A stretch of DNA of 38,188 nucleotides from an uncultured Bacteriovoracaceae bacterium (GTDB taxonomy: Bacteria > Bdellovibrionota > Bacteriovoracia > Bacteriovoracales > Bacteriovoracaceae), in contig CALHLC010000060.1 of the NCBI GenBank assembly GCA_938034385.1, positions 1 to 38,188 of the forward strand, given 5' to 3'. The position numbers and the translations under genes were made by a program. Under the pieces are notes generated by a model, which saw only the letters and a list, made by a program, of their open reading frames with translations, made no database searches and was not told the origin of the DNA. Of the stretch, positions 1 to 21,498 are shown piece by piece; position 1 is the stretch's first letter; each line of letters opens with the position of its first letter.

Positions 1-500
1 CAGCACCAACGAGTCCAACAGCACCAACGAGTCCAACAGCACCAACGAGTCCAACAGCACCAACGAGTCCAACAGCACCAACGAGTCCAACAGCACCAAC
101 GAGCCCAACAGCACCAACAGCACCAACAGCACCAACAGCACCAACGAGCCCAACAGCACCAACGAGCCCAACAGCACCAACGAGTCCGACAGCACCAACG
201 AGTCCGACAGCACCAACGAGCCCAACAGCACCAACGAGTCCGACTTCACCAACTTCACCGACTTCACCGACTTCACCAACTTCACCGACTTCACCGACTT
301 CACCGACTTCACCGACTTCACCGACTTCACCGACTTCACCAACTTCACCGACTTCACCAACTTCACCGACTTCACCAACTTCACCGACTTCACCAACTTC
401 ACCGACTTCACCAACTTCACCAACTTCACCGACTTCACCGACTTCACCGACTTCACCGACTTCACCAACTTCACCAACTTCACCAACTTCACCAATTTCA
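1..500 (+). repeat. In-frame tandem repeats (18-bp then 9-bp units)
   Basis: Bases 1-243 are degenerate 18-bp units encoding APTSPT, with some PTAPT variants. Bases ~244-500 are 9-bp units encoding SPT that alternate between CCA and CCG for Pro and between ACT and AAC-containing forms. The array continues beyond the left edge. The units keep the frame, so copy number can change without breaking the gene. Confidence 0.9.
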
Positions 501-6715: not shown

Positions 6716-7621
6716 ATGAAAATTACCTTATTTTACGATCATGTCACAGTGTTAGATTATGCCTACTTTTCAGAACATCTTGGGCCTGTAGGGCATTCTC
6801 AAGTTGTTGATGTGGAATTTATTGGAAAAACAGATCATGAAGGAATGCTTTATGATTTTTCATTGGCAAAAAAGAAGGTTAAAGAAATTATAGATAGAGA
6901 GTGTGACCATCGATTTGTCGTTCCCAAAGCAATGACAACAATGAAGGACGGACAAGCTCATATTAAAACCTCTTTTGGTTTTGGTGACGAGTCAATTGAA
7001 TATTGGTGTCCTGCTGAAGGAATTTGTGAAATTCCATTTGCTCATGTAAGTGATGCAACCTTAGTAACGCATTTAGAAGAGCTAGTAATGAAGGAGATGC
7101 CTGAAACGGTGAGTGCCATTAAATTAAGCTTAAGGCCTGAGATCTTAGAACCAGAAGCTTCATTTTTTCATTATACACACGGACTAAAAGATCATTATGG
7201 AAATTGCCAACGATTAATTCATGGGCACAGAAGTACTTTAAATGTTTTTAGAAATAGCATTCGTGATTATGAATTAGAAGAAATGCTTGCCAGTGATATT
7301 TTCTCTAGCAATATTCACTTTGTTATGTGGGATAATATCACTAACAAAGAAGAGATCATAAAGTCTGAGGATATGGAATTTCCAGTAGGGAGATTACCAA
7401 ATACTCCTTTTGTTGAAATTGAATATACTTCACAGCAAGGTAAGTTTAGAGCAAAACTTCCTGGAAAGATTTGTTATATAACACCTAAAGAAACTACAGT
7501 TGAAAACTTATCTATACATTTTTGTACCTTAATAAAATCTGAATATGCTCTAGAGAATGAGCAAATAACAGTCAATGCTTTCGAAGGGATAGGAAAAGGC
7601 TCAACTACTACTCTTGTTTAG
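6716..7621 (+). CDS. Duplicated 6-pyruvoyl-tetrahydropterin/QueD-like synthase
   Basis: The protein (301 residues) is about twice the length of QueD/PTPS enzymes and appears to contain two related modules. The first (about 1-140) has GHSQVVDVEF, a DFSLAKKKVKEII helix and CDHRFV, like the DFG-L-K-V and DH-FLN motifs of QueD, but no catalytic Cys. The second (about 150-301) has THGLKDHYGNCQRLIHGH, combining the zinc His residues and the catalytic Cys. It ends near AFEGIGKGSTT, where family members place a substrate-binding Glu. QueD makes 6-carboxytetrahydropterin for queuosine; related enzymes make other pterins. No other queuosine gene is in the window. It starts directly after the methyltransferase stop. 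Confidence 0.75.
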   Translation: MKITLFYDHVTVLDYAYFSEHLGPVGHSQVVDVEFIGKTDHEGMLYDFSLAKKKVKEIIDRECDHRFVVPKAMTTMKDGQAHIKTSFGFGDESIEYWCPAEGICEIPFAHVSDATLVTHLEELVMKEMPETVSAIKLSLRPEILEPEASFFHYTHGLKDHYGNCQRLIHGHRSTLNVFRNSIRDYELEEMLASDIFSSNIHFVMWDNITNKEEIIKSEDMEFPVGRLPNTPFVEIEYTSQQGKFRAKLPGKICYITPKETTVENLSIHFCTLIKSEYALENEQITVNAFEGIGKGSTTTLV

Positions 7622-7680: not shown

Positions 7681-10281
7681 ATGTTATTAGCTGATTATAA
7701 AATTCCAAAATCTCATGAACTTTTCTTAGAGATTTCAAACGAAATCAATACTATTCGAGAAAACAAACTAAAAGAAACTCCTGATGCCAATCAGAAAGAA
7801 AAAATTAGGAGCGTAGATGAAGCAATCACGATTCTAAAAGTCTTATCTGTATTTAAAGATCTCGTTGAAAAGTTTTTAAGTAAAAACCCCAGTTTTGTCC
7901 CTGTTATTGAAGGTGACTTTTTAAGATTAGAAAAATTAGAAAATAAAAGAGGTATTCAAGATAAAATTCTATTCCATGATCATCTTTTCTTCAAAGAAGA
8001 TGACTTTCCTGTTTCTATAGAGGGTGAGTTTTTAAGTGATATTGTGCCTAATTATCCTGATGTATTTAAAAACTGGATTGAAGAATATATCGGAATCCAT
8101 GAAAAAAATGAATTAGAACTAAGAGAGAAATTTAATGATAAGAAAAATCTAAGTTCTCTTGAGTGTCAGTGCTTTGATTGCGTAAGCTTGTATAGAACGA
8201 GAGTAGCAGAAGTTACAAAAGAAAAAGTTTTAAAAAGAATCTCTAAATTAGAAGATGATATTGATAATGGGATAGCGAGTGACTTAAAGATCAATAAGTT
8301 ATCATATTTATATCAAGATGCTCATAAACAAATACAAAGTATTTTAAAAAGATCTAGGCAGAATTTAAGGAAGTCGAGTTTTAATAAAATTAGTAATGAC
8401 TCTAAAGACTTAATTAAGAATAAATTTTTCTATCAAGTAGGAGAGAAGAATACGGCGAGCTTTTATGTTGAAAAACTAAAGGCCTTTTTGTTTTCCAACT
8501 TAGATGGGGTAAAACCTGAATTCTTTGCACAAGAAGAGTTAGAGAGGTTTTTCACTAGATTAAAATATAATATTTGGAGACCAGCGAGTTTTTTAAAAAA
8601 TGATTTTGCTAGGTTTACCCAAACTCTTCTAGCTCTTAAGAGAAAAGATGTATCGTCTGGAATTCTAACACAGTATTTAGGACAATTTTGGATTCACTCT
8701 AAAGCGAGAAGAAAAAACAGACAAATTATCTATCACATGGGACCAACTAATTCGGGTAAAACTTATAACGCAATCGAAGCATTGGCTAAAGCTAGTAGAG
8801 GTTGTTATCTAGCTCCGCTTAGGCTTTTGGCAGGTGAGATTTATGACACGCTAAATACTAAAGGAGTTCCAACTACTCTTTTAACTGGAGAGGAGGTTAT
8901 AGAAACTCCTCACGCTGAACATTTCTCATCTACAATTGAGATGGCCAGACTTAAAGATGAGTTTGACTGTGTTGTAATTGATGAGATTCAAATGATCTCA
9001 GATAAACAAAGAGGTTGGGCATGGACCCGAGCACTCATCCATATGGATAGCCAAGAGATTCATTTGTGTGGAGATGCTTCAGCTCTTGAATTAGTTGAAA
9101 AGATTCTAAAATTAACAGGAGATGAATTATCTATTAATCAGTATGAGAGAAAAACGGAGTTAATAGTTGAGTCTGGGCCAGTGGAGATGGAGAACTTAAG
9201 ATCGGGTGACGCTCTGATTGTATTCTCGAGAAGAAATGCTTTGAAGAATAAAATTGCACTTGAGAAAATTGGTCACAAGGTTTCTATTATTTATGGTGCA
9301 CTTAACCCTGATGTTCGAAGAGAACAGGCAAGAAGATTTGATAGTGGTGAGACAAGCATTATTGTAAGTACAGATGCAATTTCTATGGGAATGAACTTAC
9401 CAGTGAAAAGGATTGTCTTCTCTACATTTGTGAAGTTTATAGCATCTAAAGAATATCACTTAAGCTCAAGTGATATAAAACAAATTGCTGGAAGAGCAGG
9501 GAGATTTGGAAGGTTTCCTAAAGGTTTTGTGACTTATATTGATAATGAGAAGAACGAAGGTGGAGTAGATACTCTAAAAGGATCTCTTGAAGGTACGTTA
9601 GAGCCAAAAACTAGCTCAATGCTTGGACCAGATCTAGATCTTTATTTAAGTGTTAACTCGGCCTTGAGCGATGAAGGGCTAGTAACACTAAGGTTTTCTG
9701 AGTTTTTACGATTATTTAACGAAATGGATTTCAGTGAACCATTCTTATGCGTTAAATTGTCAGAAATGATTGAAGTAGCAGAGATGATTGAGGCCATAGA
9801 CGATAGACATGGTAATACCATGAAGCCTAAAGATATTTTTGGATTTTCATGTGCTCCGGTAAGTTTGAGAAATCCAGACCACCTGGAATATTTCTTATTA
9901 ATAGTTAATAAATTTGCCAACCAATCAGTGATAAAGAATCGGTTAATTGACTCAAAATCTATAAGTATTGATTATTTAGAAACAGCTATTAAGAGTGTTG
10001 AATTATATCAATGGCTTGCAAGGCATTTTGAAATGCAATATTTTGAATTTGACTCGCTTGAACTGAGTGGAAATAAGAAATCAGCAGTTGAGCAACTTAA
10101 TTTATTACTTTCAGAGAAAACAATTAAGTATTATAATCCAAGAGCACGCTTTAGTAGAGGGCGTGGAAATAATGGGCCTAGAAAAAAGAAAAAGTTTAAT
10201 AAAAAAACATCTCATGGAAAAAAAGCAAAGTTTAGTAAATCAAGCAAGAAAAATTCTCGAAGGAGAAAACCTAAAAAGTAA
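7681..10281 (+). CDS. SUV3-type superfamily 2 RNA helicase
   Basis: This 866-residue helicase has a core resembling mitochondrial SUV3. It has Walker A MGPTNSGKT (~353-361), APLRLLAGEIYD (Ia), VVIDEIQMIS (II, DEIQ) near 431, HLCGDAS (III), STDAISMGMNLP (V) and QIAGRAGRFGR (VI) near 601. A SUV3-C-like segment follows (MKPKDIFGFSCAPVSLRNP). SUV3 unwinds RNA, in mitochondria together with PNPase. The first ~340 residues are a helical, charged extension I do not recognise, with one CxCxxC-like cluster (LECQCFDCVS). The last ~45 residues are Lys/Arg/Ser-rich and likely bind RNA. The 3' end overlaps the DUF455 gene in another frame. A cytoplasmic role in RNA processing or decay is expected by family. 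Confidence 0.85.
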   Translation: MLLADYKIPKSHELFLEISNEINTIRENKLKETPDANQKEKIRSVDEAITILKVLSVFKDLVEKFLSKNPSFVPVIEGDFLRLEKLENKRGIQDKILFHDHLFFKEDDFPVSIEGEFLSDIVPNYPDVFKNWIEEYIGIHEKNELELREKFNDKKNLSSLECQCFDCVSLYRTRVAEVTKEKVLKRISKLEDDIDNGIASDLKINKLSYLYQDAHKQIQSILKRSRQNLRKSSFNKISNDSKDLIKNKFFYQVGEKNTASFYVEKLKAFLFSNLDGVKPEFFAQEELERFFTRLKYNIWRPASFLKNDFARFTQTLLALKRKDVSSGILTQYLGQFWIHSKARRKNRQIIYHMGPTNSGKTYNAIEALAKASRGCYLAPLRLLAGEIYDTLNTKGVPTTLLTGEEVIETPHAEHFSSTIEMARLKDEFDCVVIDEIQMISDKQRGWAWTRALIHMDSQEIHLCGDASALELVEKILKLTGDELSINQYERKTELIVESGPVEMENLRSGDALIVFSRRNALKNKIALEKIGHKVSIIYGALNPDVRREQARRFDSGETSIIVSTDAISMGMNLPVKRIVFSTFVKFIASKEYHLSSSDIKQIAGRAGRFGRFPKGFVTYIDNEKNEGGVDTLKGSLEGTLEPKTSSMLGPDLDLYLSVNSALSDEGLVTLRFSEFLRLFNEMDFSEPFLCVKLSEMIEVAEMIEAIDDRHGNTMKPKDIFGFSCAPVSLRNPDHLEYFLLIVNKFANQSVIKNRLIDSKSISIDYLETAIKSVELYQWLARHFEMQYFEFDSLELSGNKKSAVEQLNLLLSEKTIKYYNPRARFSRGRGNNGPRKKKKFNKKTSHGKKAKFSKSSKKNSRRRKPKK

Positions 10282-11032
10282 ATTAACTGCTTTTGAAAAT
10301 CCTATATTTGATCAAGTTAAAGATTATTCTATTAAGGAGCCTGGCCGACTAGAGAAGCTAAAGTTTTCTAATAAAAAGCTTAAATTTCCTAAGAATTTTG
10401 AACATATTGAATCAAGAGCTCGGGCTATTCACGCTTTTGCAAATCATGAATTATTGGCTATCGAAATTATGTGTCTGGCATTATTAAAGTTTAGTCATAT
10501 TGATGGTTTGACTTCATTTAAAAAGTCATTAATTAATACAATTCATGATGAACAAAAACATCTAAGTTTATATATTAAAAGAATTGAAGATCTTGGATAC
10601 GAGTTTGGTGATTTTCCTTTGAACTGTTATTTTTGGAGTCAAAGCCTCGAAATAAAAAGACCGGCACAATTTAGTGCTATGATGTCATTAACTTTTGAAG
10701 CCGCTAATTTAGATTTTTCTCATCACTATATGAATGAATTCAGAAAGATAGGAGATAAGGAAAGTGCAGATATTATGAAGGTTGTCTTTGATGATGAAGT
10801 CAATCACGTTCATTTGGGTCTTCATTTTATGAATTCCTGGAAAGAGAGACAGAAAATTTGGGATTATTATGTCGAAAACTTAATCTTTCCCCTTACTCCT
10901 GCGAGATCGAAAGGCATATATTATCAAAGAAGCTTTAGAGAATTAGCAGGATTTAATGATGAATATATTAAAAGTTTAGAGAACTTCGATGATGGTTATA
11001 GGATAACGAATAGGAAAAAATGTACTACTTAG
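10172..11032 (+). CDS. DUF455 ferritin-like di-iron protein
   Basis: With the ATG at 10172 this is 286 residues. It has the E...ExxH...E...ExxH pattern of ferritin-like di-iron proteins: Glu93 (HELLAIEIM), Glu127/His130 (DEQKH), Glu176 (LTFEAANLD) and Glu209/His212 (DEVNH). The surrounding helices match the DUF455/MiaE-like family (RPAQFSAMMSLTFEAANLDF, DDEVNHVHLGLHF). Such enzymes use two irons for oxidation or hydroxylation; the DUF455 reaction is unknown to me. The start is uncertain: ATG 10172 has a GAGG 11 bases upstream, and ATG 10214 is an alternative. Either way it begins inside the basic tail of the helicase gene (68-110 bp overlap) and overlaps the ATP-grasp-like gene by 13 bp. Confidence 0.78.
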   Translation: MGLEKRKSLIKKHLMEKKQSLVNQARKILEGENLKSKLTAFENPIFDQVKDYSIKEPGRLEKLKFSNKKLKFPKNFEHIESRARAIHAFANHELLAIEIMCLALLKFSHIDGLTSFKKSLINTIHDEQKHLSLYIKRIEDLGYEFGDFPLNCYFWSQSLEIKRPAQFSAMMSLTFEAANLDFSHHYMNEFRKIGDKESADIMKVVFDDEVNHVHLGLHFMNSWKERQKIWDYYVENLIFPLTPARSKGIYYQRSFRELAGFNDEYIKSLENFDDGYRITNRKKCTT

Positions 11033-11901
11033 ATTTTTACGAGCCATTTGGAACGAATACTCGTTGGAATAGTCTTTTTGATTATTTATATTTTTTTATT
11101 GAGGGATCTGAGTTTTATACACGTAATAATTTTTCAGAGGAGTATGTTAAGTATTTAGATGATCGTTTTTCAATAAAAGCGAAATTTCGTAAAAGAAGAC
11201 CTTATCACCAGTTTAAAAACTTTATTTACTTTAATGATAAACAAGCAAACTCTCTTCTGCACTCAAAAGAACCATTTTTTAAATTTCTAAAAAAGCAAGG
11301 ATATTTTTATCATGAAGCGTTTATTACTAATGAAAGTTTAGATAGGCCTGGATACATATATAAAATGTTGACTGGATTTTCTGGTAGAGGGATTTTTGAA
11401 GATTATATGAAAGATACTATGATAGTGGAGAAAAAACTTGATAGAGTTTTGGATTTCAGTATCTTTTTTCATAATGGAGAGTTAATCATTTATGAAAATA
11501 TTGTTGATAAAACCTTCCATTATAAAGGTAGTGTCTTTGATAAAAGCAACCTTTATGACCCTAAAGCTTTTCTTCATGAGAAGTCTGTTTCAGGGCCAGT
11601 GATAGATGATTTTTTAAAAATATTACAAACTTCTATTTCCTTCGTTAGTGGTATAAGTAATGGATTTTCCATTGATTACTTTATTTATCGATCAGACGGA
11701 GGACTACGAATTCATCCTGGTTGCGAGGTAAATGATAGAAAAACTATGGGTTACTTATTTTACCAAGTACTATTAAGGCATTTTCCAAAATCGAGCAAAG
11801 CTATGTTCTCGCTTGAGAAAAAAATACCTGAAAAGGGAGTAAGGTTGTCTCCTTTAAATGCAACCTTTCCAGTCCACTACTTAGATCTCTCTGGATTATA
11901 A
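11020..11901 (+). CDS. ATP-grasp-like protein, unknown substrate
   Basis: I recognise no named family, but three stretches of the 293 residues line up with ATP-grasp motifs. YKMLTGFSGRGIF (~118-130) looks like the Lys plus Gly-rich phosphate loop. VEKKLDRVLDFSIFFHNGE resembles the adenine/central strand region. FSIDYFIYRSDGGLRIHPGCEVNDR (about 222-246) resembles the Asp-strand-EvNxR metal-binding segment, ending in TMGYLFYQ. ATP-grasp enzymes join a carboxylate to an amine or thiol through an acyl phosphate. The gene starts 13 bp inside the DUF455 gene, so the two products are probably made in step. No signal peptide is seen. Moderate confidence in the fold, none in the substrate. Confidence 0.6.
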   Translation: MYYLDFYEPFGTNTRWNSLFDYLYFFIEGSEFYTRNNFSEEYVKYLDDRFSIKAKFRKRRPYHQFKNFIYFNDKQANSLLHSKEPFFKFLKKQGYFYHEAFITNESLDRPGYIYKMLTGFSGRGIFEDYMKDTMIVEKKLDRVLDFSIFFHNGELIIYENIVDKTFHYKGSVFDKSNLYDPKAFLHEKSVSGPVIDDFLKILQTSISFVSGISNGFSIDYFIYRSDGGLRIHPGCEVNDRKTMGYLFYQVLLRHFPKSSKAMFSLEKKIPEKGVRLSPLNATFPVHYLDLSGL

Positions 11902-11927: not shown

Positions 11928-12836
11928 ATGTTAAAATTTCTAAAAAGTCTATTTAAGAAAAATGGTTCTTCTCCTTCGACTAGCGATGAAGAATACCTTG
12001 ATTTTAATGACTATACAGATGTGAGTATAGATCTAAAAAATATTCATACAAGAAAGTCATCTAAATTAAATTTAAAACCTAAAATTGAAGAAAAAATTAT
12101 AGCAGATATCATACCTAAAATTGATCCGGAATTTAAGGCAACTCCCAAGGAAGATAAAGAATTTGCTACCAATAGTAGAATTATTTTTGTTGATGAAAAA
12201 GAAGAAACAGAGGTAAATACCAGAGACTTTGCTCGCCTAGGAGAATTACTTAAAAAAGAATCGAACTCTAAAGGAGTCGACTCTTTTGAAAAATCACAAT
12301 TAGTGTTGCAGAAAAAAAGAGATGATTTTACAATTAAGAAATCTCCAAAACAAAGAAGAAATGTAGTCACTAATACTAATATTCATTCATCTCAAACGAT
12401 GTCTAAAACATATGAAACAGTGAACTTTAAGATGGATGGACCAGAGAATAAGAAAAGTAAAAAATCGTTATATTTACTTATCTTAAGCTTGTTAGGTTTA
12501 ATTACTCTTTTCATTCTTTTAAATTCTGACTCAGAAGATCCTGAAGTCACATCTGAAACAACTCAGGATAGAGTGGAAGAGCTAACTCAAACTTCCAAGC
12601 CTAAACCGAAAGTTATTAGACATAAAATAAATTATAAATCTTCTGGAGCAGGACTTGTATATAGTTGCTCAGCAAAGCATTGGGCCTGTGTTGATAATAA
12701 GAATTTTAAGAAATGTAAGCTTAGCTCGAAACAGAAAGTGTGTATTGGAGTGAAAGTTTATAAATCTAAAAAAGGTTGTCAACGAGTACAACAAAAAGCG
12801 ATCAACCTGAATAAAAAATTAAAGTCTTGTCTCTAG
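11928..12836 (+). CDS. Single-pass membrane protein with Cys-rich C-terminal domain
   Basis: No family is recognised. The first ~175 of 302 residues are charged, low-complexity and probably cytoplasmic and disordered. One transmembrane helix follows (LYLLILSLLGLITLFILL, ~181-199). The last ~100 residues hold six Cys (YSCSAKHWACVD, FKKCKL, KVCIGV, KGCQR, KSCL). A type II topology would put these in the oxidising periplasm, where they could form disulfides. The C-terminal module could be a small binding domain; that is a guess. The gene begins 26 bp after the ATP-grasp-like gene and ends 1 bp from the opposing HD-GYP gene. Confidence 0.7.
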   Translation: MLKFLKSLFKKNGSSPSTSDEEYLDFNDYTDVSIDLKNIHTRKSSKLNLKPKIEEKIIADIIPKIDPEFKATPKEDKEFATNSRIIFVDEKEETEVNTRDFARLGELLKKESNSKGVDSFEKSQLVLQKKRDDFTIKKSPKQRRNVVTNTNIHSSQTMSKTYETVNFKMDGPENKKSKKSLYLLILSLLGLITLFILLNSDSEDPEVTSETTQDRVEELTQTSKPKPKVIRHKINYKSSGAGLVYSCSAKHWACVDNKNFKKCKLSSKQKVCIGVKVYKSKKGCQRVQQKAINLNKKLKSCL

Positions 12837-16836: not shown

Positions 16837-17985
16837 TTATTTAAAAGCTTGCTCAAGGTCCTTTTTCAAGTCTTCAACATTTTCTATCCCAACACTTAAT
16901 CTAATAAGGTTATCAGAAATATTTAACTTCTTTCTCATGGTAAGAGGCACAGAAGCATGAGTCATAATTGCGGGGTGATTAGCAAGACTTTCAACTCCTC
17001 CTAAACTCTCTGCTAGTTTAAAGAACTTAAGTTTTGATAGAAATTTTCTAGATTCTTTTATTCCACCCTTTAGATAAAATGAAATCATTCCTCCATATCC
17101 AGACATCTGCTTCTTTGCAATTTTATGTTGAGGGTGATCTTTAAGTCCTGGGTAGATTAACTTTTCAACTTTTGTATGTTTTTGAAGGTACTTTACAATC
17201 TCTTTGGCCCCTTGCTCATGAGCTTTCATTCGAATTGCTAAAGTTTTAAGCCCTCTTAAAACCAACCAACTATCAAATGGTGATTGAGATGGTCCTATAG
17301 AGTTTTGCAAATACCAAATCTGATCATAGATCTTTTTTGAATTCATCATCATGGCCCCACCAACTATATCACTATGACCGTTGATATATTTAGTTAAGGA
17401 ATGGACGACAATGTCAGCTCCAAAGTCCATAGGTTTTTGGAAAATAGGAGACATAAAAGTATTATCAACGATTAAGATCGTTTTATATTTTTTACAGAGT
17501 TTAGAGATTTTTGCAATATCACTAATTTTAAGTAGTGGATTGGTTGGAGTTTCAATCCATAGAAGATAGGGCTTAAGTTCTTTTAAGCTCGACTCAACTA
17601 ACTTCAAATCAGTTGTATCTATGAAATGAGATTTATAATGCTTATCAAAAACATTATTTAATAATCTATTTGTTCCCCCATATACATCATCACCACATAA
17701 GATATTTCTTCCTTTTGGGATAGAGTGAATGATTAGAGTAACAGCTGCCATTCCAGATGAAGTAGCGATACAATATTTTGCATTTTCAATCCCGGCCAGA
17801 CATTCTTCTAGTCTTGTTCTTGTTGGGTTATGACTTCTTGTATATTCATACCCTTGATGCTTACCAGGAGAGCTTTGAACATATGTTGAAGTTTGATGAA
17901 TAGGAGGCATGATAGATCCAGTCACAGGATCAGGATGACCTCCAAGGTGAATGACCTTAGTTTCAATTTTCATATCTTTTTTCAT
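16837..17985 (-). CDS. Cystathionine gamma-lyase/gamma-synthase family PLP enzyme
   Basis: This full-length (382-residue) Cys/Met-metabolism PLP enzyme has YTRSHNPTRTRLE (48-60) as phosphate-binding region, SSGMAAV (76-82), ETPTNPLLK, VDNTFMSP and HSLTKYINGHSDIVGG with the PLP Lys199. The C-terminal ESLGGVESLANHPAIMTHAS is also typical. Lyases cleave cystathionine to cysteine; synthases make it from O-acylhomoserine. Sequence alone does not separate them, but the cystathionine beta-synthase gene 27 bp upstream favours the lyase, giving homocysteine-to-cysteine reverse transsulfuration. The GshA gene further upstream would use the cysteine. Cytoplasmic. Confidence 0.9.
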   Translation of the reverse strand: MKKDMKIETKVIHLGGHPDPVTGSIMPPIHQTSTYVQSSPGKHQGYEYTRSHNPTRTRLEECLAGIENAKYCIATSSGMAAVTLIIHSIPKGRNILCGDDVYGGTNRLLNNVFDKHYKSHFIDTTDLKLVESSLKELKPYLLWIETPTNPLLKISDIAKISKLCKKYKTILIVDNTFMSPIFQKPMDFGADIVVHSLTKYINGHSDIVGGAMMMNSKKIYDQIWYLQNSIGPSQSPFDSWLVLRGLKTLAIRMKAHEQGAKEIVKYLQKHTKVEKLIYPGLKDHPQHKIAKKQMSGYGGMISFYLKGGIKESRKFLSKLKFFKLAESLGGVESLANHPAIMTHASVPLTMRKKLNISDNLIRLSVGIENVEDLKKDLEQAFK

Positions 17986-18012
17986 AATTAACCTCGAAAA
18001 AGAGAATTAGTC

Positions 18013-19056
18013 TTAGACTATAGTAACATCTGTTTTAGGTAAAACACTATTGATACTTGCTGCGAGCTTTTGATCAATAGGCTCAAGCTTATAAGAGTGA
18101 GATGTCATCCATTCGTTATTATAGATTTTACTAACATACTTAGATCCAGAATCTGGTGCAATTACAAGTATCTTTTCTGGATTATCAAGAGTTTTTGCAT
18201 ATTTAATAGCTCCAAGGACTGCTGCACCTGAACTTCCTCCAGCAAAAATACCTTCAAGTTGTAAAAGCTGTCTTGTTAAAACAAATGATTCTTCATCTTC
18301 AACAGTAATGAACTTATCAATGGCCTTAAAATCAATAGTTGTAGGGATAAAATCTTCACCTAGACCTTCAAGAACATAGGAGTGAGCTTCGCTCATTTCA
18401 CCTGTTTCATGAAAGTGCTTAAGAATAGACCCTTTAGGATCAACTCCTATGACTTTCAAATTAGGCATTTTCTCTCTTAAGAACTTACTCGTTCCAGAGA
18501 TCGTTCCCCCTGTTCCAACTCCAGCAACGAGTGCATCAAATTGGCCCTCAGTCTGTCTGAAAATTTCAGGTCCAGTAGAGTGGTAGTGAGAGTTTGGATT
18601 GTCTTGATTATGATATTGATTAGTATAAAAACAATCTAGATTTTCAACTAAACTAGCTGCAACGCTATAATATGACCTAGGATCATCAGGCTCAACGGCT
18701 GTAGGGCATAAAACTACAATCGCTCCCATCGCTTTCAGGGCATTGATTTTTTCCTTAGATTGCTTATCTGCCATGACAAAGACGGCCTGACAGCCGTGTA
18801 CAGAGGCAAATAAGGCTATCCCAGCTCCAGTATTTCCACTAGTGGCTTCAACGATTAGTCCGCCTGGTTTTAGCTCTCCTGCTTCCATAGCAGTTTGGCA
18901 GATATACTTCCCAATTCTATCTTTTATCGATCCACCAGGATTTAAGTATTCAAGCTTTACATAGATTTCAGAATCTATATGTTCAGCCACTTTTCCAAGT
19001 TTAATGATTGGAGTTTCACCAATAATATCGAGAATGTTTTGATCAAATTTTTTCAT
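18013..19056 (-). CDS. Cystathionine beta-synthase-type PLP enzyme (no CBS-pair domain)
   Basis: This 347-residue fold-type II PLP enzyme has GGSIKDRIG with PLP Lys45, TSGNTGAGIA (72-81) for the cofactor, VGTGGTISG, and GGSSGAAV. Its C-terminal APDSGSKYVSKIYNNEWM is closer to cystathionine beta-synthase than to O-acetylserine sulfhydrylase. The regulatory CBS-pair domain of animal enzymes is absent, as in many bacterial forms. It condenses homocysteine with serine to cystathionine. Its ATG lies two bases after the GshA stop, and the gamma-lyase follows, so the three enzymes form one pathway-ordered unit. Confidence 0.88.
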   Translation of the reverse strand: MKKFDQNILDIIGETPIIKLGKVAEHIDSEIYVKLEYLNPGGSIKDRIGKYICQTAMEAGELKPGGLIVEATSGNTGAGIALFASVHGCQAVFVMADKQSKEKINALKAMGAIVVLCPTAVEPDDPRSYYSVAASLVENLDCFYTNQYHNQDNPNSHYHSTGPEIFRQTEGQFDALVAGVGTGGTISGTSKFLREKMPNLKVIGVDPKGSILKHFHETGEMSEAHSYVLEGLGEDFIPTTIDFKAIDKFITVEDEESFVLTRQLLQLEGIFAGGSSGAAVLGAIKYAKTLDNPEKILVIAPDSGSKYVSKIYNNEWMTSHSYKLEPIDQKLAASINSVLPKTDVTIV

Positions 19057-19058
19057 TT

Positions 19059-20279
19059 CTAGTCCTGATTTTGGATATTCAATATTTCATGTCCAGCAGC
19101 AATTGTCGAGATTCTAGCTATAGTAGAATAAACTCCCTCTTTAGCCTTATGGTCAAACCCTTCATGGATCTCGCTGATACAAAATTTCTGATAGACCATG
19201 CCGCGAGCATTCAAGTTTCCGCTAGCATCTTTTAAAGGATTTGCTCTCAAGAACCCACCAACAGGTTTACCACCGATGAGATAAATCGTTATCTCAGCAG
19301 GCCCACCATCGTGGGTTAAGACTGTATCGACACCTTCTTGAACAATTACCGAGGTGAACTTAATCTTATTTTTTCCGATGTCCATTTTATTTCGTTTTTT
19401 TCTATTCATGGAAAGAATTTCATCTGGTCCATCAACAACCATAATACCCATTCCATAAGTTCCTTGGTTAGCCTTGATGAAGATCTTTTTATCAGCTCCA
19501 ACTTCAGATTGAATAGACTCAACACTCTTAGCAAGTTCTTCAAGACCTTCTTTAGTGCTGAAATCGATATTCTCAGCAACATTGAACTTTGCTTGCAAGA
19601 GGTTTGGATTTATTGAAAACTCTTCACAAAATTTGTCAGCGATTGTTTTGTAATGAAGAAAATGAGCACCTTTTGTTCGGACCTGCCATCCAAGTCTAGG
19701 AGTTGGAACAACCTTTTTCTCAACTTTTTTCCAATCAATCTCAATGGGACTTGATTGGTCATGATTTAAAACAATTAAATCATAAATTCCATTTTTAGAA
19801 TAAATATCATCTTCAAACTTTGCTTTAAGAATTTTTAATTCATGGCCAGATTTAGAAACTAAGTCTAACTCATCACTGTCTTCAAATAAGTTTTCATCTA
19901 AACTAATGATATCAACTTCGAAATCATATTTACTTAAAAGAGTATGAAGAGAGTAAAGGTTATCAAGATAAAATAAGTTTTTAGTATGAGATTCAGGAAT
20001 AAGTGCAACTTTTTTTGTATCTGGATTAAGGGCCAGAACTTCTTTTTTGATTCTCTCGGCTGTGATATTAAAATCAAGAGTACAGATATTATTAAATCCA
20101 GCAGGGTAGAGGTTATTATCTACCGGAGCAAATTTATTTAAACTCTCTCTTATATCTACACTATTATAGAAAGGAACAGGTACATGAGAGTAATGTTCAT
20201 CAAAGTATTGATTTATTTTATTCCAATTATGTGTGACGAAATTTTCTAATTCTTCTTTATTGTTAATTTGAAAGTTCAT
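19059..20279 (-). CDS. gshA: Glutamate-cysteine ligase, proteobacterial GshA family
   Basis: The 406 residues match the GshA family found in diverse proteobacteria (Pfam GshA), not the E. coli type. They contain VPVPFYNSVDIRESLNKFAP, DNNLYPAGFNN, LIVLNHDQSS, GWQVRTKGAHFLHY, the ATP-grasp-like KANQGTYGMGIMVVD (~270), MNRKKRNKM, VIVQEGVDT and PVGGFLRANPLKDASGNLNA. It joins Glu and Cys to gamma-glutamylcysteine, the first step to glutathione. No gshB is present in the window. It starts immediately after the beta-barrel gene's stop (TAG-ATG) and leads into cystathionine beta-synthase two bases downstream, tying cysteine supply to its use. Cytoplasmic. Confidence 0.88.
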   Translation of the reverse strand: MNFQINNKEELENFVTHNWNKINQYFDEHYSHVPVPFYNSVDIRESLNKFAPVDNNLYPAGFNNICTLDFNITAERIKKEVLALNPDTKKVALIPESHTKNLFYLDNLYSLHTLLSKYDFEVDIISLDENLFEDSDELDLVSKSGHELKILKAKFEDDIYSKNGIYDLIVLNHDQSSPIEIDWKKVEKKVVPTPRLGWQVRTKGAHFLHYKTIADKFCEEFSINPNLLQAKFNVAENIDFSTKEGLEELAKSVESIQSEVGADKKIFIKANQGTYGMGIMVVDGPDEILSMNRKKRNKMDIGKNKIKFTSVIVQEGVDTVLTHDGGPAEITIYLIGGKPVGGFLRANPLKDASGNLNARGMVYQKFCISEIHEGFDHKAKEGVYSTIARISTIAAGHEILNIQNQD

Positions 20280-21072: not shown

Positions 21073-21498
21073 TTAGTTCAAAGTCTGAGGAGTTTCAATT
21101 CCAGTATTTAAGTTATTTAAATAATTCGCCACATCTGGAGAAGGCATAGCTGGTTTTACCTCTTTAGGTGCAGCCATTTTTTCCTCAGTCACGTGACTTC
21201 CAATGTTAGCTTTGATCTCAAGAGATTTTATGTATCCCGTGAAGATTCCAGCATCTGACTTGATCACTCTTTTTAATAATTCAGTGTTTTCAAGACCAGT
21301 GTTTTTCTTTTCTTGATCAAAAAGTAATTGGATCTGAGTAGTATAAGTAATGTCTCTACCAGACTTGTTATCAATAACCTTTATTTCGTTACCGTCTCTT
21401 ATAATCTGAGCGATCTCTTCTAAGGTTACGTAGCACGACTGATGGGTGTCATATAGCTTTCTATTCTGATACCGTTTAATGATTCTCACTTTTTCCAT
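21073..21498 (-). CDS. phaR: PhaR-type polyhydroxyalkanoate synthesis regulator
   Basis: The first ~62 of 141 residues match the PHB/PHA accumulation regulator DNA-binding domain: IIKRYQNRKLYDTHQSCYVT, LEEIAQIIRDGNEIKVIDNKS, GRDITYTTQIQLLFDQE. PhaR proteins sense polyhydroxyalkanoate and repress granule-associated genes; some relatives act as general regulators. The tail (SDAGIFTGYIKSLEIKANIG) is shorter than in full PhaR. No PHA synthase or phasin gene is in the window, so the target is unknown. A ggagtctc element lies just upstream of the ATG (minus strand). It is followed by a 34-bp gap before the beta-barrel gene and may be co-transcribed with it. Confidence 0.85.
   Translation of the reverse strand: MEKVRIIKRYQNRKLYDTHQSCYVTLEEIAQIIRDGNEIKVIDNKSGRDITYTTQIQLLFDQEKKNTGLENTELLKRVIKSDAGIFTGYIKSLEIKANIGSHVTEEKMAAPKEVKPAMPSPDVANYLNNLNTGIETPQTLN

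What the first reader, a model, noticed from the sequence alone, without database searches (positions are those of the whole stretch)
7681..11901. Overlapping trio: SUV3-type RNA helicase, DUF455 di-iron protein and ATP-grasp-like protein
Seen: the DUF455 start lies inside the helicase's basic tail (68-110 bp overlap) and the ATP-grasp-like gene overlaps DUF455 by 13 bp. Known: SUV3 helicases act on RNA, ferritin-like di-iron enzymes oxidise substrates, ATP-grasp enzymes form amide-type bonds. Inferred: translation is coupled, and the last two may modify one substrate in sequence, possibly an RNA- or translation-linked one. I know of no described pathway with this trio.
Basis: partly seen in the sequence, partly recalled or inferred. 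Interest (0 to 1): 0.68.

Follow-up and report, generated by a model that had tools for sequence, protein, structure and literature searches.

The report
Conserved two-step iron oxidase and ligase
Two overlapping genes in this Bacteriovorax-like bacterium encode an iron-dependent oxidase and an ATP-using bond-forming enzyme that travel together, and are fused into one protein in other bacteria, so they very probably make one unknown oxidised, peptide-like small molecule; the RNA helicase next to them is only a neighbour.

Summary
The three overlapping genes are real, but the functional unit is a duo, not a trio. ORF 11020-11901 has no Pfam or NCBIfam match, yet folds confidently (pLDDT 90.7) as an ATP-grasp enzyme nearest to peptide ligases (8ynd, 3wvq, BesA), with conserved Mg-site-type D219/E236/N238. 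The DUF455 product folds as a ferritin-like bundle with all six expected di-iron ligands invariant. In 72 sampled genomes of the order, 62 have both genes, 10 neither, none one alone. Outside the order the two are fused into one 590-800 aa protein, in other Bdellovibrionota and in 23 of 188 genomes of the class of a Verrucomicrobiota MAG (41-48% identity). DUF455 proteins linked to this ATP-grasp form their own 100/100 clade. The SUV3-type helicase is in all 72 genomes, including the 10 without the pair, and strong matches are absent from fused-gene genomes; an RNA or translation link is not supported. Best reading: a bifunctional di-iron oxidase plus ATP-grasp ligase acting on one small, probably amino-acid-derived substrate. 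The logic is known (mangotoxin), with another oxidase fold and a fusion; no description of this pair was found. Substrate unknown.

The parts
10172..11032 (+). DUF455 (PF04305) ferritin-like di-iron protein, 286 aa from ATG 10172 (longest frame from GTG 10067; alternative ATG 10214). Candidate iron ligands at codons 10463 (E), 10550 (E), 10559 (H), 10697 (E), 10796 (E), 10805 (H)
   Evidence: PF04305 E=3e-46; AF2 pLDDT 94.8, ferritin-like fold; six ligands invariant in split, fused and standalone groups apart from truncated rows
11020..11901 (+). ATP-grasp ligase of a family without Pfam or NCBIfam model; glycine-rich loop near 11374-11391 (GFSGRG), Mg-site-type residues D219 (11674), E236 (11725), N238 (11731), and R240 (11737)
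   Evidence: AF2 pLDDT 90.7, pTM 0.90; nearest solved folds ATP-grasp peptide ligases Z 16-17.5; residues invariant or nearly so
11020..11032 (+). 13-bp overlap of DUF455 and ATP-grasp genes (probable translational coupling)
   Evidence: sequence; same spacing class in 58 of 60 loci
10172..10281 (+). 110-bp overlap of the helicase 3' end (basic tail) with the DUF455 start; long overlap mostly limited to this genus
7681..10281 (+). SUV3-type DExQ RNA helicase with Lys/Arg-rich tail: syntenic neighbour, judged NOT part of the functional unit
   Evidence: PF22527 E=1e-62; present in all 72 order genomes sampled, also those without the pair

Best explanation
The DUF455 gene and the ORF at 11020-11901 encode the two halves of one enzyme system: a ferritin-like di-iron oxidase and an ATP-grasp carboxylate-amine ligase of the dipeptide-ligase type. 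The ligase would activate a carboxylate as an acyl phosphate with ATP and join it to an amine, and the di-iron site would activate O2 to hydroxylate or desaturate the same molecule, before or after ligation, giving an oxidised, probably amino-acid or dipeptide-like metabolite. In most other lineages the two are one polypeptide; in the window's order that gene was split once into two overlapping genes. Shown by computation: both folds, conserved metal- and ATP-site residues, strict co-occurrence, adjacency, fusion. Inferred: that both are catalytically active, that they act in series on one substrate, that the substrate is small and amino-acid-like, and that the split form is the derived one. 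The helicase is a neighbour that shares the transcription unit at most.
For: Adjacency: all 80 best DUF455 loci hold the ATP-grasp gene next to DUF455 (77, within 1.2 kb) or fused to it (3). Co-occurrence: 62 both, 10 neither, 0 discordant among 72 order genomes. Fusion: 15 of 19 loci from other families of the phylum carry both domains in one 590-800 aa frame; 23 of 188 genomes of the class of a MAG recorded as Verrucomicrobiota have a full-length fusion at 41-48% identity. Profile-profile match of split ATP-grasp to the fused C-terminus: 98.1% probability, E=8e-14. Clade: split plus fused DUF455 form one group, 100/100, apart from standalone DUF455; split forms one group, 99/95. Ligase type: nearest folds are peptide ligases 8ynd Z 17.5 (rmsd 3.5, 262 aligned), 3wvq Z 17.0 (rmsd 4.3, 273 aligned), BesA 8yi6 Z 16.1 (rmsd 4.3, 271 aligned) and SAOUHSC_02373 7r8q Z 16.0 (rmsd 3.9, 261 aligned), ahead of PurK and others near Z 13; weak LdmS dipeptide-ligase matches for a fused protein (8.6e-5) and a Bacteroidales homologue (8.4e-8). 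Oxidase type: E98, E127/H130, E176, E209/H212 (numbering from 10172) invariant in all groups apart from truncated rows; profile near-misses in the PDB are mostly ferritin-like proteins, above all aldehyde decarbonylases. Dispensability as a unit: genomes lacking the pair keep helicase and flanking genes.
Against: No substrate, product or activity is known; no paper on DUF455 enzymology was found. Fold similarity shows no function, and the DUF455 Foldseek E-values are weak (best 7e-3) with Z 14-15 for a helical bundle, only modestly above background. The fused genes outside the order have no conserved neighbours, so no precursor-making or transport genes point to a pathway. In one order genome (G045) DUF455 is on another contig while the ATP-grasp gene stayed by the helicase. 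LdmS matches are far under the equivalog cut-off (21-31 versus 475 bits).
Confidence: 0.6

Rival explanations
1. The pair modifies a macromolecule (a protein or ribosomal peptide side chain, a C-terminus, a lipid or cell-wall unit): the ATP-grasp domain forms the amide or ester and the di-iron domain hydroxylates the same site.
For: ATP-grasp enzymes of graspetide and pheganomycin type act on peptides (PMC8939145; 3wvq Z 17.0). The fusion stands alone in many different gene contexts, as expected of an enzyme that acts on an abundant cell component.
Against: No conserved partner gene lies beside fused genes; closest folds include dipeptide ligases for free amino acids. No precursor search below ORFs of 70 aa was made.
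Confidence: 0.2
2. The DUF455 half is not an oxygenase but a metal- or ligand-binding ferritin-like protein that regulates, supplies iron to, or structurally supports the ATP-grasp enzyme.
For: Top structural matches of DUF455 mix Dps/bacterioferritin and oxygenases at nearly the same Z; ferritin-like proteins without oxygenase activity are common (own knowledge).
Against: The ligand spacing (E, ExxH, E, ExxH) and longest structural coverage fit aldehyde-deformylating oxygenase (186 aligned, Z 14.6, rmsd 3.2); clade-specific residues in the metal-ligand motifs (H92, Y134, N179 in 10172 numbering) suggest a substrate pocket tied to the ligase partner.
Confidence: 0.12
3. The trio works together on RNA or translation, as the first reader suggested (helicase unwinds, the other two modify an RNA-linked substrate).
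For: Overlapping or closely spaced genes in one direction in most genomes of the order.
Against: Helicase in all 72 order genomes including 10 without the pair; no strong SUV3 match in fused-gene genomes; the whole block is syntenic; inserts of 0.8-1.6 kb between helicase and DUF455 in five sampled loci; pair missing from the locus while helicase stays.
Confidence: 0.04
4. The DUF455/ATP-grasp adjacency is only inherited synteny without a functional link.
For: Neighbouring genes over about 10 kb are also syntenic in the order.
Against: Fusion into one protein in two phyla, no sampled genome of the order with one gene alone, DUF455 clade restricted to the linked form.
Confidence: 0.02

Closest known systems
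Mangotoxin pathway: di-iron oxidase MboA with ATP-grasp ligases MboC/MboD (PMC13185094)
   Same: Di-iron oxidase encoded with ATP-grasp amino-acid ligase; oxidised short peptide product
   Different: MboA is a heme-oxygenase-like di-iron oxidase in a five-enzyme cluster; here the oxidase is ferritin-like DUF455, fused to or overlapping the ligase, usually without further cluster genes
BesA (8yi6) with the BesE hydroxylase of the beta-ethynylserine pathway (own knowledge for the pathway)
   Same: ATP-grasp fold close to ORF3 (Z 16.1); ligation to an amino acid coupled with oxidation of the dipeptide
   Different: BesE is a mononuclear Fe/2-oxoglutarate enzyme; separate genes; no DUF455
LdmS, L-aspartate-L-methionine ligase (NF047900; SAOUHSC_02373 7r8p/7r8q, identity of the two from own knowledge)
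   Same: Fold (Z 16.0) and weak profile match of fused and Bacteroidales homologues
   Different: Far below the equivalog cut-off; LdmS has no oxidase partner known to me
ATP-grasp peptide ligases 3wvq/3wvr (PGM1 type, own knowledge) and Streptomyces 8ynd/8ynq
   Same: Best structural matches of ORF3 (Z 17-17.5)
   Different: 10-13% identity; natural-product enzymes versus near-universal gene in an order
Cyanobacterial aldehyde-deformylating oxygenase (4kvq, 5k53)
   Same: Ferritin-like fold over 186 residues, same ligand order E / ExxH / E / ExxH
   Different: About 13% identity, acts on fatty aldehydes, no ATP-grasp partner
Standalone DUF455 proteins (other Bdellovibrionota families)
   Same: Same Pfam family and metal ligands
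   Different: Separate clade (100/100), no ATP-grasp match in 20 loci

Membership tests
DUF455 (PF04305) | Pfam model above gathering score | tested here: met
   158.3 bits versus 34.3
Ferritin-like di-iron proteins | Four-helix ferritin-like bundle | tested here: met
   AF2 pLDDT 94.8; Z 14-15 to bacterioferritin, Dps and ADO; Foldseek best E 7e-3 only
Ferritin-like di-iron proteins | Six ligands E, ExxH, E, ExxH | tested here: met
   Invariant in 61 split, 14 fused, 19 Verrucomicrobiota-class fused and 20 standalone rows, apart from one gap at some sites in truncated rows
Ferritin-like di-iron proteins | Iron bound and O2-dependent oxidation | not testable with these tools
   needs protein
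ATP-grasp superfamily | ATP-grasp fold | tested here: met
   AF2 pLDDT 90.7; top matches all ATP-grasp
ATP-grasp superfamily | Glycine-rich loop and Mg-binding acid/Asn near the C-terminus | tested here: met
   D219, N238, R240 invariant, E236 all but one row, S121/G122 mostly conserved, also in fused and distant standalone rows
LdmS dipeptide ligase (NF047900) | Equivalog cut-off 475 bits | tested here: not met
   21.4 bits (fused), 31.4 bits (Bacteroidales), no hit for the window protein
PGM1/BesA-type ATP-grasp peptide ligases | Amide bond between amino acids or peptides | not testable with these tools
   only fold resemblance
HDO di-iron oxidase plus ATP-grasp systems (mangotoxin kind) | Oxidase of heme-oxygenase-like fold | tested here: inconclusive
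   DUF455 best matches are ferritin-like; HDO chains were not listed, which excludes nothing
HDO di-iron oxidase plus ATP-grasp systems (mangotoxin kind) | Oxidase gene linked to ATP-grasp ligase gene | tested here: met
SUV3 helicase (gene 7681-10281) | DEXQc_Suv3 domain | tested here: met
   210.5 bits versus 27
SUV3 helicase (gene 7681-10281) | SUV3_C domain above cut-off | tested here: not met
   10.7 bits versus 27; hence called SUV3-type, not SUV3
Graspetide systems | Short precursor peptide gene beside the ligase | not tested
   only ORFs of 70 aa or more were clustered

The most novel reading that the evidence does not exclude
An undescribed bifunctional enzyme family, ferritin-like oxygenase fused to a dipeptide-type ATP-grasp ligase, makes an unknown oxidised peptide-like metabolite or cofactor across Bdellovibrionota and Verrucomicrobiota without a dedicated gene cluster.
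Probability: 0.45. Interest if true: 0.75.

Novelty: new variant of a known kind. Interest (0 to 1): 0.55.

Why it matters
It gives a DUF455 subfamily a partner and a testable chemistry, and it places an unmodelled ATP-grasp family (no Pfam or NCBIfam name) as its companion. A one-protein oxidase-ligase that stands alone in genomes of two phyla would be missed by gene-cluster mining, so it points to a metabolite outside current searches. It also warns that strong synteny with a helicase in one order is not evidence of an RNA role.

Tried and rejected
Helicase as partner: rejected on phyletic pattern and absence from fused genomes. Glutathione role (GshA lies at 19059-20279 and the second step of glutathione synthesis is ATP-grasp): the genome has its own GSH-S_ATP match elsewhere and GshA lies about 7 kb away on the other strand; not pursued. 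Direct Pfam, NCBIfam and PDB sequence searches with ORF3 gave nothing useful; alignment-based structure prediction settled the fold. MiaE and COQ7 as relatives of DUF455: one weak COQ7 match (E=0.003, far under cut-off); MiaE did not appear among the listed fold matches, which excludes nothing. Conserved neighbours of the fused gene as a substrate hint: none found. A second ATP-grasp copy in G004 lies in a carbamoyltransferase/glycosyltransferase operon without DUF455, which hints at small-molecule or surface-sugar chemistry but is one case. Promoter and terminator scans gave no more than shuffles. Literature searches for DUF455 and for ATP-grasp with ferritin-like found no description of this pair; the library lacks most subscription journals.

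Full report
What is there. The window (contig C60 of a 2.67-Mb genome) carries on the + strand a SUV3-type helicase (7681-10281), a DUF455 gene and an ORF of 293 aa (11020-11901). The DUF455 start is best placed at ATG 10172: an 'agaggg' motif lies upstream and the 83% identical relative in L063 starts at the same residue.

Is the third ORF ATP-grasp? No Pfam, NCBIfam or PDB sequence match of value exists. Homologues from the same order gave an alignment with a K...GFSGxG loop, an R..DFS motif, and D...ExNxR. With 63 sequences AlphaFold2 gave pLDDT 90.7, pTM 0.90. Foldseek and VIA-align list ATP-grasp enzymes throughout; the best are a Streptomyces peptide ligase (8ynd Z 17.5, rmsd 3.5, 262 aligned), 3wvq (Z 17.0, rmsd 4.3, 273 aligned), BesA (Z 16.1, rmsd 4.3, 271 aligned) and SAOUHSC_02373 (Z 16.0, rmsd 3.9, 261 aligned), with PurK-type enzymes near Z 13. 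D219, N238 and R240 are invariant and E236 nearly so in split, fused and distant standalone rows. So the answer is yes, and an active enzyme is likely.

Is DUF455 a di-iron protein? PF04305 matches at 158 bits. With 58 sequences the model has pLDDT 94.8 and is a ferritin-like bundle; Dps, bacterioferritin and aldehyde-deformylating oxygenase lead at Z 14-15. This is only modestly above what helical bundles reach by chance, and Foldseek's best E is 7e-3. What makes the case is the pattern E98, E127xxH130, E176, E209xxH212 (numbering from 10172), invariant in all four groups tested apart from truncated rows.

Do they belong together? In 61 loci of the order, 58 of 60 pairs are spaced -47 to +3 bp. 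Among the 80 best loci in the species-level collection, the ATP-grasp gene is beside DUF455 in 77 and fused in 3; those 80 were chosen by closeness to the window protein, so they are mostly of one order. Among 72 genomes of the order sampled in the phylum searches, 62 have both genes, 10 have neither and none has one only (G049 has just a distant, short DUF455 match). Outside the order the ATP-grasp domain is the C-terminal half of a 590-800 aa protein whose N-terminal half is DUF455: 15 of 19 loci (of the rest two are cut by contig ends, one has the two domains in overlapping frames, one has no DUF455). The profile of the split ATP-grasp matches the fused C-terminus at E=8e-14. One fused protein comes from a MAG recorded as Akkermansia (Verrucomicrobiota); 23 of 188 genomes of its class, itself included, have a full-length relative, at 41-48% identity to it. 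The split and fused DUF455 rows form one clade (100/100) apart from 20 standalone DUF455 proteins, and the split rows form one clade (99/95), which is most simply one gene fission at the base of the order; the root is not known, so the direction is inferred.

Is the helicase part of it? No. It is found in all 72 sampled order genomes, including the 10 without the pair; strong SUV3 matches are absent from the fused-gene genomes. Its neighbourhood is syntenic over about ten genes, so adjacency there says little. In G055 and G040 the same locus runs straight from helicase to the usual next gene with the pair missing. In five sampled loci 0.8-1.6 kb separate helicase and DUF455. In G045 the ATP-grasp gene stays by the helicase while DUF455 is elsewhere.

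How it most likely works. Shown: folds, conserved sites, physical and evolutionary linkage. Inferred: the ATP-grasp half forms an amide through an acyl phosphate, the DUF455 half uses O2 at two irons to hydroxylate or desaturate, and both act on the same small, amino-acid-derived molecule. The dipeptide-ligase leaning rests on the fold ranking and on weak LdmS profile matches of a fused protein (8.6e-5) and a Bacteroidales homologue (8.4e-8), neither near the family cut-off. The lack of conserved neighbours around fused genes suggests that the protein suffices on its own with a common metabolite.

Against what is known. A di-iron oxidase paired with ATP-grasp ligases is a known logic: mangotoxin's MboA with MboC/MboD, and at least 25 clusters of heme-oxygenase-like oxidases with ATP-grasp (PMC13185094); earlier genome analysis predicted such pairs (PMC2922099). 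Here the oxidase has a different fold and the two are fused or overlapping outside any cluster. No description of this pair was found in the open library. I therefore rate it a new variant of a known kind, with function open.

Noticed in passing
window 6716-7621: One protein with two 6-pyruvoyl-tetrahydropterin-synthase/QueD-like domains, found upstream of the helicase in only 5 of the sampled loci.
   Followed up: partly
L242 6525-11501 (G004): A second, DUF455-free copy of the ATP-grasp gene in a tight operon with a carbamoyltransferase, a 408-aa unknown and a group-1 glycosyltransferase.
   Followed up: partly
L302 and L111 (G045): DUF455 and its ATP-grasp partner lie on different contigs, the ATP-grasp gene remaining beside the helicase.
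   Followed up: partly
window 1-495 and 537-1538: Tandem repeats of 9, 18 and 54 bp at the start of the window, followed by a gene with an intein/HINT-type splicing domain (PF14890, E=1e-9).
   Followed up: no
window 16837-20279: Minus-strand genes that read as cystathionine gamma-lyase-type, cysteine-synthase-type (by eye) and GshA glutamate-cysteine ligase (PF08886 tested); parts of the block are conserved in 21-35 loci.
   Followed up: no
window 11928-12836: Conserved gene of unknown function downstream (56 loci) with a hydrophobic stretch and a cysteine-rich C-terminus; no Pfam match.
   Followed up: no
L243 7992-9200, L245 5986-7191, L244 7977-9173: Standalone relatives of the ATP-grasp half in Bacteroidales (weak LdmS match) and in a Streptomyces natural-product-like cluster.
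   Followed up: partly
window 21073-21498: PHB/PHA accumulation regulator domain (PF07879); whether the genome makes polyhydroxyalkanoate was not checked.
   Followed up: no
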